Positions 23,619 through 52,327 of a stretch of DNA of 64,000 nt are shown piece after piece. This DNA comes from Brachybacterium tyrofermentans (GTDB taxonomy: Bacteria > Actinomycetota > Actinomycetes > Actinomycetales > Dermabacteraceae), in NCBI RefSeq assembly GCF_014897585.1, contig NZ_JABUXW010000020.1, positions 1 through 64,000 of the forward strand, given 5' to 3'. Below the pieces are notes generated by a model that saw only the letters and a program-made list of their open reading frames with translations, was not told the DNA's origin and searched no databases. The first letter of the stretch is position 1, and each line of letters begins with the position of its first letter. Made by a program: the position numbers and the translations under genes.

Positions 23619-23646
23619 GGGCCGGGGCCGGGGCCGGGGCCGGGGA
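23619..23646. repeat. (GCCGGG)n hexanucleotide repeat
   Basis: Four uninterrupted GCCGGG units (23621-23644) flanked by more G/C runs. Both strands carry at least four runs of three or more G or C, so a G-quadruplex or i-motif is possible. Confidence 0.75.
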
Positions 23647-23660
23647 GCGCGGAAGGGCTG

Positions 23661-23702
23661 CTGGTGACGTGAGCTGGCAGTATCGCCAGCTCACGTCACC
23701 AG
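23661..23702. terminator. Long palindrome, 17-bp perfect stem
   Basis: The left arm CTGGTGACGTGAGCTGG (23661-23677) and right arm (23686-23702) are exact reverse complements around an 8-base loop. The pairing continues outward with one wobble. It lies about 90 bp past the TauE stop and can serve as that gene's terminator. The inner GAGCTGGC...GCCAGCTC core recurs inside the exonuclease gene at 51632-51655. Confidence 0.7.
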
Positions 23703-23788
23703 CGGCCCTCCGGCTACATGAACCGTCCTCGCCCCCGGTTGTGGTCCCGCCCAGCCCCGCAGGGTCTGACCGGGCAGCGCCCGCGGTG

Positions 23789-26956: not shown

Positions 26957-27073
26957 GCCCCGCAGACTCCCCACCACACCACCGGCACCGATCGGCCACC
27001 CGCGCCGAGGCCCGCGCGACAGGTGCAGGACGAGCGCAGGAGGAGTTCAGGACGCCTCCGGAGCCCTTGCACG

Positions 27074-27125
27074 ACGCGAGTGTGCGCTGTGCTTCCACCG
27101 AGGGAAGTGCAGCGCACACTCGCGT
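27074..27125. terminator. 52-bp hairpin between convergent genes (copy 1)
   Basis: A perfect 16-bp arm pair (27074-27089 with 27110-27125) continues inward by two wobble and five Watson-Crick pairs to a 6-base loop. It is placed between the fructosamine kinase gene (+) and the AztD-like gene (-), so it can act in both directions. The sequence resembles copy 2 at 29438-29489. Confidence 0.75.
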
Positions 27126-27236
27126 TCTGGAGGGATGGTGGGGACAGGAAGGTCACAGTGTCGACCGGGGTCGGGCGTCTGGCGTCAGGCCGTGACCGGA
27201 GTCGGCCTCAGCGGCAGCATGCCGCTCGAGTCCAGG

Positions 27237-29366: not shown

Positions 29367-29437
29367 CGCGGTCGTCCGCACTGCCCGACCCCTCACGCCG
29401 GTTCCGCTCCGCCGGGAAGTCCACGGCCTCGTGGCGA

Positions 29438-29489
29438 ACGCGATCGTGCGCCGCGCTTCCGACAGGGGAAGCACGGCGCACGATGGCGT
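29438..29489. terminator. 52-bp hairpin between convergent genes (copy 2)
   Basis: The tip GCTTCC-GACAGG-GGAAGC and a long outer stem with GTGCGCCG/CGGCGCAC carry two mismatches (29454/29473 and 29442/29485). It lies between the lipoprotein gene (+) and gdhA (-). The left arm matches copy 1 (27074-27125) at about 17 of 21 bases. Confidence 0.75.
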
Positions 29490-29579
29490 CTCGCGCCGGG
29501 TCGGACCCGGCCAGATCGGCCCAGGGCCAGATCAGACCGGGGCCGGCTCAGCTCTGGACCGGCTCAGCTCAGGGCCGGC

Positions 29580-39760: not shown

Positions 39761-39820
39761 GGTCAGTCCCGGGAAGGTCAGTCCCGGGACGGTCAGTCCC
39801 GGGACGGTCAGTCCCGGGAC
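39761..39820. repeat. 15-bp tandem repeat over the GDPD2 stop codon
   Basis: Four copies of GGTCAGTCCCGGGAC (the first ends in AA). The rightmost copy contains the stop codon and last codons of GDPD2 (minus strand), so the repeat spread by copying the end of that gene. Confidence 0.88.
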
Positions 39821-47167: not shown

Positions 47168-47208
47168 CGAACGGGCCGATCCGCTGACGACGCGGATCGG
47201 CCCGTTCG
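47168..47208 (+). terminator. Ferritin terminator hairpin
   Basis: CGAACGGGCCGATCCGC (47168-47184) pairs perfectly with 47192-47208 over a 7-base loop: a 17-bp stem without a following T-run, which is usual in high-GC actinobacteria. Confidence 0.85.
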
Positions 47209-47255
47209 CTGTTCGCCCCGGAGGGGACGGGTCCCAGAAGTCTCGAATCCGGCGC

Positions 47256-47315
47256 GTCGAGCCTGCACCACGTGTCGTTGAGGCTCCTCTCACCGACACA
47301 TGGCGCAGGCTCGAC
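47256..47315. terminator. 60-bp hairpin between convergent genes
   Basis: An outer 11-bp perfect stem (GTCGAGCCTGC at 47256-47266 with 47305-47315) is followed inwards by about 14 more pairs with three mismatches and one wobble, to a 4-base loop. It sits between ferritin (+) and BCCT (-), closer to the latter. Confidence 0.75.
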
Positions 47316-47429
47316 AGTGGCCAGCGAGGTGCGGGGCCCATCCACGCCGCGGCACGAGGCGACGCGGCACGAGGCGACGCGGGGCGAGGCGCGGCCGTGG
47401 AGTGGGAAGTCGCCCGTCGGCCCCGCGGC

Positions 47430-51235: not shown

Positions 51236-52327
51236 ATGCTGCGCATCGCCACGGCCAACATCAACGGGATCCGCGCCACGCATCGTCGGGGGTTCGACGA
51301 TTGGCTGGCCACGCGGGGCTGCGACGTGATCGCGCTCCAGGAGGTGCGGGCGCAGGCGGACAGGATCCCCGAGCGCGCGTTCGGGGACTTCCACGTCGCC
51401 CTCGACACAGGGACCCTGCCCGGGCGCAACGGCGTCGCGGTGCTCACCCAGCAGGCCCCCGCGGCGGTGCGGACCTGGAGCGGGACCGCCCTCATGGGTG
51501 GGCCGACGGGAACCCCCGGCGCGAGCGGCACCACGGGAACGCCGGACGCAGGCAGCACCACGGGAACGCCGGATGCGGGCAGCGCCACGGGGTCACCGGG
51601 CGCGCGTGACACGGGCTGGCCGATGATGACTGGAGCTGGCGATATCGCCAGCTCCCATCACGATCGGCCCGCCGGCGGCACCAGCACCCTCGAGCTCATC
51701 CCGTCCCCCGACCACGTCCCGCTCTCGCGCGGGCTCGGCCCCTTCGCCACCCACGGCCGCTACCTGGAGGTCGACCTCGCCGACGCACCGGTCACGATCG
51801 CCTGCCTCTACCTGCCCAAGGGCGGCCTTCCCGTCGAGCTGCAGCGCCCCGAACGGATGCGCGAGGCACCCGACGGTGGGGCCCGCTACGCCCGGAAGAT
51901 GGGCTTCATGGCGGCGTTCTCGCGGTATCTGACCAGCACCCGACGGGCGGCCGCCGCCGCGGGCCGCGAGTTCCTCCTCATGGGCGACCTCAACATCGCG
52001 CACACCCGGCAGGACCTCGCCGCGTGGAGACGGAATCAGCAGAACGACGGCTTCCTCCCGGAGGAGCGGGAGTGGTTCGGGCAGCAGCTCTCCCCGCGCA
52101 CGCTGGTCGACGTCGTGCGGAGCCTGCATCCGGATGAGGACGGTCCGTACTCATGGTGGTCGTGGCTGGGGCAGTCCTTCGCGAAGGATGCGGGATGGCG
52201 CCTGGACTATCACCTGGCCACGCCGCGTCTGGCCCGCAGCGCCGTCCGCGCCGAGGTCGACCGGGAGTTCCGCGGCGTGCGGCTCTCGGATCACTCACCG
52301 GTGATCGTCGACTACGACCTGCGCTGA
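51236..52327 (+). CDS. xth: Exodeoxyribonuclease III / AP endonuclease with large insertion
   Basis: A 363-residue enzyme of the exonuclease III fold that repairs abasic sites. The conserved residues are ATANINGIRA (Asn8), LQEVRAQ (Glu36), GRYLEVDLA, LPKGG, FLLMGDLNIAH and SDHSPVIVDYD. Between the RNGVAVL strand and the LGPFATHGRYLE strand an insertion of about 60 residues (88-149) is present. It is made of 9-residue repeats (TTGTPDAGS type) and then a segment encoded by a perfect 24-bp palindrome. The core motifs are intact, so the enzyme is probably active, with the insertion as a surface loop. Confidence 0.87.
   Translation: MLRIATANINGIRATHRRGFDDWLATRGCDVIALQEVRAQADRIPERAFGDFHVALDTGTLPGRNGVAVLTQQAPAAVRTWSGTALMGGPTGTPGASGTTGTPDAGSTTGTPDAGSATGSPGARDTGWPMMTGAGDIASSHHDRPAGGTSTLELIPSPDHVPLSRGLGPFATHGRYLEVDLADAPVTIACLYLPKGGLPVELQRPERMREAPDGGARYARKMGFMAAFSRYLTSTRRAAAAAGREFLLMGDLNIAHTRQDLAAWRRNQQNDGFLPEEREWFGQQLSPRTLVDVVRSLHPDEDGPYSWWSWLGQSFAKDAGWRLDYHLATPRLARSAVRAEVDREFRGVRLSDHSPVIVDYDLR
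51497..51604. repeat. 27-bp coding repeats in xth
   Basis: Four diverged 27-bp units (51497, 51524, 51551, 51578) encode the TTGTPDAGS-like repeats of the inserted loop. Confidence 0.85.
51632..51655. repeat. 24-bp perfect palindrome in frame within xth
   Basis: The 12-bp arm GGAGCTGGCGAT is followed directly by its exact reverse complement. It covers eight whole codons (Gly-Ala-Gly-Asp-Ile-Ala-Ser-Ser, residues 133-140). Its inner core differs from the intergenic palindrome at 23661-23702 by two central bases. Confidence 0.9.

What the first reader, a model, noticed from the sequence alone, without database searches (positions are those of the whole stretch)
51632..51655. Palindromic element inside the exonuclease III gene
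A perfect 24-bp palindrome occupies exactly eight codons in a loop insertion of xth. Its 22-bp core equals the core of the intergenic hairpin at 23661-23702 except for two central bases. This suggests a dispersed palindromic element (REP or MITE-like) that can enter a gene in frame.
Basis: partly seen in the sequence, partly recalled or inferred. Interest (0 to 1): 0.7.

Follow-up and report, generated by a model that had tools for sequence, protein, structure and literature searches.

The report
Dispersed hairpin repeat inside xth gene
The palindrome in this DNA-repair gene is one copy of a 74-letter hairpin repeat scattered through Brachybacterium genomes, and related hairpins sit in matched pairs around small nuclease genes more often than chance, which hints at a repeat-plus-enzyme partnership.

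Summary
The 24-bp palindrome is the centre of a 74-bp imperfect palindrome (51607-51680) with sharp ends. It belongs to a dispersed family: 10 places in this genome, 21 of 36 sampled genomes of the genus, 0 of 369 genomes of other genera in a wider draw. Apart from xth, the copies examined lie almost entirely between genes, mainly downstream of them. The stem covaries. Copies at corresponding sites of two species are no more alike than other copies of those species, while copies within a genome are alike: sites persist, sequences turn over in concert. It is REP-like, but no RAYT/Y1 transposase was found in the 36 genomes and no target duplication. In five species the family brackets a Vsr-like nuclease gene (PF18741/DUF559) beside fumC (one orthologous locus). 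More widely, 13 of 79 such loci are bracketed by a matched hairpin pair, against 2 of 1102 random positions. In a genome without this family, the nuclease-bracketing hairpin recurs at 25 places. I read this as a REP/RAYT-like system with another candidate enzyme. Dispersal is shown; the nuclease's role is inferred. 66 of 79 loci are not bracketed, and no nuclease bracketed by this family was found in this genome.

The parts
51607..51680 (.). 74-bp palindromic element (family R1) inside xth; arms TGACACGGGCTGGCCGATGATGACTGGAGCTGGCGAT and, read back, TGCCGCCGGCGGGCCGATCGTGATGGGAGCTGGCGAT
   Evidence: (75.7 bits)
51236..52327 (+). xth paralogue (exonuclease III family) that carries the element
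51479..51757 (+). variable linker of xth, 93 aa here; 35-66 aa in the 19 loci read that have no element in the gene, 69-169 aa in the four with it
51526..51599 (+). short tandem repeats in the linker next to the element (read by eye)
23645..23718 (.). second R1 element in the window, between two genes on the minus strand
27063..27136 (.). palindrome of another dispersed family (fam2, ..TGCGCTGTGCTTCC), which in G015 brackets a nuclease gene
29427..29500 (.). second fam2 palindrome
47249..47322 (.). palindrome of a third dispersed family (fam0, CGAGCCTGCACCATGTGTCGGTGAG)

Best explanation
SHOWN: the thing in xth is one copy of a 74-bp, hairpin-forming, mostly intergenic repeat dispersed in the genus. 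It occupies lasting sites, mainly 3' of genes, and its sequence evolves in concert within each genome. One copy lies in the variable linker of xth in four species. SHOWN as an association: hairpins of this kind, in many sequence families, form matched pairs around small Vsr-like nuclease genes (PF18741/DUF559) more often than at random positions, and nuclease similarity and hairpin similarity correlate. INFERRED: the nuclease is the trans-acting partner that recognises the hairpin and spreads or homogenises it, so the pair works like REP/REPIN plus RAYT but with a PD-(D/E)XK-type enzyme in place of the Y1 transposase. INFERRED: hairpins are tolerated, or kept, downstream of genes because they act in the 3' ends of transcripts or at least do no harm there. 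In xth the copy is probably a tolerated passenger, since the linker varies freely.
For: Family size. Sharp ends and sequence-conserved outer 9-10 bp. Stem covariation: 15 of 24 pairs with changes on both sides, 0 of 500 shuffles reach the covariation score (on a hand-chosen set of 15). Position: convergent 33, tandem 37, divergent 6 of 76 elements (correcting); control gaps weighted by length 10%, 45%, 45%. Concerted evolution: within-genome identity 0.842 (324 pairs), between genomes 0.713 (3044 pairs), corresponding sites 0.746 (35 pairs); corresponding minus other pairs of the same two genomes 0.002. Nuclease link: 21 of 29 same-family pairs in 59 nuclease loci bracket the nuclease, in 12 loci; loop-tolerant scan 13 of 79 loci against 2 of 1102 random positions, two of the 13 in other genera; nuclease identity against hairpin similarity, Mantel r 0.574, p 0.0002, 18 loci. 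A test made after the idea: in G035, which has no R1 match, the hairpin that brackets its nuclease gives 47 arm matches at 25 places (two of them the bracketing pair), 0 for the reversed control and 0 in G000. One place is the gap after fumC, where other species carry other families.
Against: 66 of 79 nuclease loci are not bracketed at this threshold; 8 of the 79 have cut flanks. The hairpin family around this genome's C24 nuclease was not seen elsewhere in the roughly 0.5 Mb of this genome examined. No R1-bracketed nuclease was found in G000, G025 or G027 among the nuclease loci fetched (not all were), though all three carry R1 elements; at the fumC nuclease of G000 the neighbouring hairpin is of another family by eye. 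Nucleases 72-77% identical to the R1-bracketed ones have different hairpins in G025. PF18741 genes occur also in genomes without R1. The five R1-bracketed nucleases are one orthologous locus and count once. No clean empty site or fresh insertion was found, so mobility is inferred from dispersal. For 29 of 81 copies the nearest relative is in another genome. Several of these proteins score below the PF18741 cut-off, and the fold prediction failed (pLDDT 39).
Confidence: 0.55

Rival explanations
1. The hairpins are RNA 3'-end structures (terminators or stability hairpins) kept by selection downstream of genes; the nuclease link is only neighbourhood.
For: Excess in convergent gaps and lack in divergent gaps; G-U outnumbers A-C on the sense strand in tandem gaps, 31 to 17 of 864 pairs, with 64 other mismatches; the gap after fumC carries different hairpin families in different species.
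Against: No T-run after the hairpin. Terminators would not be expected to share one sequence family per genome nor to evolve in concert. Nuclease genes are bracketed far above random positions.
Confidence: 0.2
2. Operator-like sites of a fast-evolving DNA-binding protein; copies change in concert because they follow the protein.
For: Species-specific arms at conserved sites; conserved outer 9-10 bp and centre.
Against: Few sites in divergent gaps, where promoters lie (6 of 76). A long stem with compensatory changes at otherwise variable positions is more than a protein site needs.
Confidence: 0.1
3. A MITE of a DDE transposon, its parent IS lost or not sampled.
For: Dispersed, sharp TGTC..GACA ends.
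Against: No target-site duplication at any tested width. In the rows shown of the arm search (G017, G030 and part of G025; those of G000 and G027 were cut off) close matches are nearly all paired at 50 bp; the exceptions seen include further direct copies of the arm 41-1800 bp from an element in G017.
Confidence: 0.1
4. Two unrelated chance palindromes.
For: None beyond GC-rich sequence.
Against: 0 expected in shuffles; 10 places in the genome with conserved 37-bp arms.
Confidence: 0.01

Closest known systems
REP/REPIN sequences with RAYT (REP-associated tyrosine transposase)
   Same: Short hairpin repeats, mostly intergenic, dispersed; a vertically kept partner gene; long persistence (background from passages of PMC8049555). 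That RAYT genes are flanked by a matching pair of repeats is recalled.
   Different: No Y1_Tnp gene in any of the 36 same-genus genomes; ends are TGTC..GACA, not GTAG (the GTAG motif is recalled); the flanked gene is a Vsr-like nuclease.
Rickettsia palindromic elements (RPE)
   Same: A palindromic repeat found inside a protein-coding gene in frame (RPE recalled; only a search listing was seen).
   Different: Here only one gene, xth, in 4 of 26 loci; nearly all other copies examined are intergenic.
MITEs
   Same: Short, non-coding, dispersed, inverted symmetry.
   Different: No target-site duplication and no parent element seen (list cut).
MTES_1575 / DUF559 Vsr-type nucleases (PF18741, PF04480)
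   Same: The candidate partner carries this domain, in part below the curated cut-off. The domain was defined in giant HEPN-helicase proteins (passages of PMC3710099), and a phage paper lists one next to homing-type endonucleases (passage of PMC10459684).
   Different: Here it is a stand-alone protein of about 300 aa, sometimes bracketed by hairpins; no such link was found by the searches.

Membership tests
REP/REPIN-RAYT | dispersed, mostly intergenic hairpin repeat | tested here: met
REP/REPIN-RAYT | RAYT (Y1 transposase) gene in the genome | tested here: not met
   0 of 36 same-genus genomes (own included) have PF01797; the family rings in 5 of 14 control genomes and in 2 of 22 genomes of other genera
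REP/REPIN-RAYT | GTAG-type tetranucleotide at the repeat end (recalled) | tested here: not met
   the end is TGTC
REP/REPIN-RAYT | gene flanked by the repeats and dispersing them | tested here: inconclusive
   a nuclease gene is bracketed in some loci and its hairpin is dispersed in G035; dispersal by the enzyme is not shown
MITE | target-site duplication | tested here: not met
MITE | related autonomous element with the same ends | tested here: inconclusive
   none seen in the rows shown; list cut
RPE-like in-frame element | found inside many different genes | tested here: not met
   75 of 80 loci called intergenic (L163 and L166 there stand for the same element). Of the other five, three are xth (L122, L160, L174), one lies at a called gene start (L193), one overlaps a gene end (L176). 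The xth copy L161 was called intergenic because my gene finder split xth.
intrinsic terminator | T-run after the hairpin | tested here: not met
   no marked A or T excess outside the 37-bp arms
intrinsic terminator | transcript 3' ends at the hairpin | not testable with these tools
   needs RNA data

The most novel reading that the evidence does not exclude
A new kind of repeat-enzyme partnership in Micrococcales: stand-alone Vsr-like PD-(D/E)XK nucleases, each with its own cognate hairpin that brackets the gene and is copied to many sites, overwriting older families at lasting 3' sites. It would be REP/RAYT reinvented with a repair-type nuclease.
Probability: 0.4. Interest if true: 0.88.

Novelty: new variant of a known kind. 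Interest (0 to 1): 0.68.

Why it matters
If the nuclease spreads or homogenises its hairpin, bacteria have a second, independently evolved repeat-spreading system, with an enzyme class that I do not know to do this. The corresponding-site pattern (same site, new sequence) also makes a long-standing question testable: whether such repeats stay because they are selfish or because the host uses a hairpin downstream of genes.

Tried and rejected
MITE reading: no target duplications. RAYT: absent from the genus sample. IS ends: single arms nearly always paired in the rows shown (cut). The first idea that the R1 element goes with a nuclease everywhere was dropped: the five R1-bracketed cases are one orthologous locus and other nuclease genes lie elsewhere. 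A first palindrome count around nuclease genes (52 in 60 loci against 5-6 in shuffles) was set aside as a weak control, since the window itself holds 7; same-family bracketing against random positions replaced it.

Limits of the samples. The control positions come from G018, G000 and the window only and overlap one another; the 79 test loci come from 40 genomes. Test loci were picked by hand from cut lists. L383 was added after its palindromes had been seen; it is not among the 13. The 400 kb of G018 was chosen because it holds three known nuclease genes; two are bracketed, the third is not at that threshold (a weak R1 match, E 0.002, lies beside it), and the two also appear among the 59 loci. 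One search counted one xth copy (L161) as tandem and missed the nuclease gene in L179 and L195; one search corrects this. Seven of 83 elements are not in that count: four in xth, L193, L147 (no left gene) and L166.

A frame argument for xth was dropped: phase 0 is open in 125 of 158 readings of the other copies. The xth tree does not settle whether the in-gene copy is one insertion or several. The fold of the nuclease was too poor to use, so no fold search was made. Six of 41 corresponding-site pairs were dropped because one copy lies in xth and the other upstream of it (with them the mean is 0.728). Gene calls come from my own codon-usage finder. The 31 viral stretches with the short core were not examined for family membership; a viral scan with the nuclease gave one partial match that was not followed.

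Full report
OBSERVATION. The 24-bp perfect palindrome is at 51632-51655, on codon boundaries of an exonuclease III family gene, xth (51236-52327). Its core equals that of the hairpin at 23671-23692 except for two central bases; none is expected by chance. Both are centres of longer palindromes.

THE FAMILY. Loose patterns gave 13 centres in this genome that I laid out; ten of them share the outer arms. From 15 copies (these 10 and 5 of relatives, chosen by hand) I built a covariance model, R1. It finds 10 clear places here, each on both strands, plus one weak place at E 0.08. In 58 genomes, 21 of 36 of the same genus (this one included) have matches at E 0.01 or better, and 3 of 22 of other genera have weak ones. 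In a wider draw of 396 genomes of the order at E 1e-4, 15 of 27 genomes of the genus match and 0 of the other 369. A strict pattern scan of a genome collection hits 12 stretches, all titled Brachybacterium (near relatives of the window's genome may be left out there). Copy numbers, as half of the matches: about 17 in G027, 15 in G030, 14 in G017, 12 in G023, 11 in G022, 10 in G000 and G011.

ANATOMY. I fetched 80 loci. They cover part of the places, since the list was cut. They hold 83 elements of 14 genomes. Conservation stops sharply 37 bp from the centre (79 loci). The consensus arm is about TGTCRYGGACGGGCCGMTGGTGANGTGMNSTGGCNAT. The outer part is conserved in sequence but its two sides do not covary; positions -24 to -8 mostly covary. 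The centre is TGGCNATATNGCCA. On the 15-copy alignment 83% of stem cells pair, against 30-52% when slid. Arms are species-specific: for example GGGACGCTGGTGATGTGCACTGGC in G030 and GGGCCGATGGTGAGGAGCCGTGGC in G025. Tandem duplications of arm and flank lie beside several copies. There is no target-site duplication.

POSITION. By my own gene finder 75 of 80 loci were intergenic, 4 coding and 1 partial (L163 and L166 stand there for one element). The coding ones are xth in G000, G015 and G022, plus L193 at a called gene start. The xth copy of G017 (L161) was called intergenic because xth was split. After correction 76 elements lie in gaps: 33 convergent, 37 tandem, 6 divergent. In this genome it is 4, 4 and 1. 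Control gaps of the same loci and the window, weighted by length, are 10%, 45% and 45%. Related species share sites, so the elements are not independent. In tandem gaps the element is nearer to the upstream stop (median 81) than to the next start (177, before correction). G-U exceeds A-C on the sense strand, 31 to 17 of 864 pairs, a weak hint of selection on RNA.

XTH. All 58 searched genomes have some match, but 26 same-genus genomes, counting this one, gave a locus of this xth paralogue. Of these, 4 carry an element in the linker, 3 carry one upstream of the gene (G011, G018, G027), and the other 19 showed neither. The scan was tuned to the R1 core and missed the G018 copy, so it is not exhaustive. 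Linkers are 69-169 aa with the element and 35-66 aa in the 19 others that could be read; G021 could not be read through, and the values printed for G019 and G001 are artefacts of the pattern. The carriers are not resolved as one clade.

CONCERTED EVOLUTION. Flanking genes define 41 corresponding-site pairs; 6 were dropped because one copy lies in xth and the other upstream. Mean identity is 0.842 within genomes, 0.713 between genomes and 0.746 at corresponding sites. Against other pairs of the same two genomes the excess is 0.002, positive in 16 of 35. The nearest neighbour is in the same genome for 52 of 81 copies, in another genome for 29. Some same-genome likeness is local duplication: L157/L158 and L199/L200 share flanks. 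On the whole sites persist while sequence is homogenised within a genome.

THE NUCLEASE. In G017, G018, G030 and G011 two R1 elements lie 1.1-1.6 kb apart, and the gene between them encodes a protein with a PF18741/DUF559 domain, between fumC and a phoH-like gene (fumC and phoH named by me from the sequence). G023 has R1 elements around the corresponding gene. At the same locus other species carry other palindrome families: G014 and G003 on both sides of the gene, and G027, G002 and G015 downstream of fumC. I took 59 loci of small PF18741/DUF559 genes of the genus and one fumC locus of G014. In the 59, 21 of 29 same-family pairs within 5 kb bracket the nuclease, in 12 loci. In 400 kb of G018, chosen because it holds three nuclease genes, 5 of 8 pairs bracket one, 2 adjoin one and 1 is elsewhere. 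In the 80 R1 loci 5 of 6 do, two of them the same pair seen in overlapping loci; in the 30 fumC loci 3 of 3; in the 26 xth loci there is no pair; the window has one (27099 and 29463) without a nuclease. These sets overlap in part. A scan that allows loops brackets 13 of 79 nuclease loci (17 of the 79 from other genera) against 2 of 1102 random positions. Two of the 13 are from other genera (L431, L438). Among 18 of 66 loci that have a bracketing pair at a looser cut, nuclease identity and hairpin similarity correlate (Mantel r 0.574, p 0.0002). Orthologous loci are included, so descent contributes, and the G025 nuclease, 72-77% identical to those with R1, has another hairpin.

A TEST. G035 has no R1 match. 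The hairpin that brackets its nuclease on C11 was searched in its genome: 47 arm matches at 25 places (two of them the bracketing pair; three places show one arm only), 0 for the reversed pattern, 0 in G000. One place is the gap after fumC (fumC at C1:994939-995394, minus strand; hairpin at 994796-994845). Of 13 copies placed, 7 are convergent, 2 tandem, 3 divergent and 1 open. The centre of several copies, TGCCATATATGGCA, resembles that of R1.

OWN GENOME. In 445 kb of this genome at least three families recur: R1 (3 in this scan), fam0 (4) and fam2 (3). The window carries two R1, two fam2 and one fam0. The C24 nuclease of this genome is bracketed by a fourth family, which I did not find elsewhere in the part examined. 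The fumC nuclease of this genome lies near a contig end, beside a hairpin of another family.

READING. Dispersal, anatomy, position and concerted turnover are shown. The nuclease association is shown statistically, within the limits of hand-picked loci. That the nuclease moves or homogenises the hairpins is inference. It works like REP/RAYT but cannot be filed there, since RAYT was not found in the genus sample.

LITERATURE (open-licence library only). No paper was listed for DUF559 with palindromic and Actinobacteria, REP elements with Brachybacterium, repetitive extragenic palindromic with RAYT, endonuclease and actinobacteria, or DUF559 with endonuclease, repeat and inverted. MTES_1575 gives 4 papers: passages of three were seen and none of those passages speaks of flanking palindromes; the fourth, on a Mycoplasma secretome, was not opened. 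DUF559 with 'palindrom' gives 2: one passage seen, unrelated; the other, on NAD in cancer, not opened. One search (palindromic repeats and concerted evolution) listed 12 of 23 papers; none was opened.

Noticed in passing
window 27063-27136 and 29427-29500: Two palindromes of a second family (fam2); in G015 four hairpins of this family lie around a nuclease gene, and a third copy is on the same contig here at about 69675.
   Followed up: partly
window 47249-47322: Palindrome of a third dispersed family (fam0), four copies in 445 kb of this genome; a perfect 17-bp hairpin lies just before it at 47168-47208.
   Followed up: partly
window 39766-39820: Cluster of short inverted and tandem GTCCCGGGAC repeats.
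   Followed up: no
L067 (G021 xth): The xth gene of G021 looks frame-shifted in the linker.
   Followed up: no
L128:5400 and L128:5612: Two palindromes with the same arm, 212 bp apart, in this genome, not matched by the R1 model.
   Followed up: no
L325, L326, L328: Three of the five small nuclease genes of this genome that I fetched lie within about 1 kb of a contig end, perhaps because flanking hairpins break assembly.
   Followed up: no
L294-L323, gap after fumC: Different palindrome families occupy the gap after fumC in different species.
   Followed up: partly
G017:C19:31666-31687: An exact R1 arm without its partner, 1.8 kb from a full element, with a gene between.
   Followed up: partly
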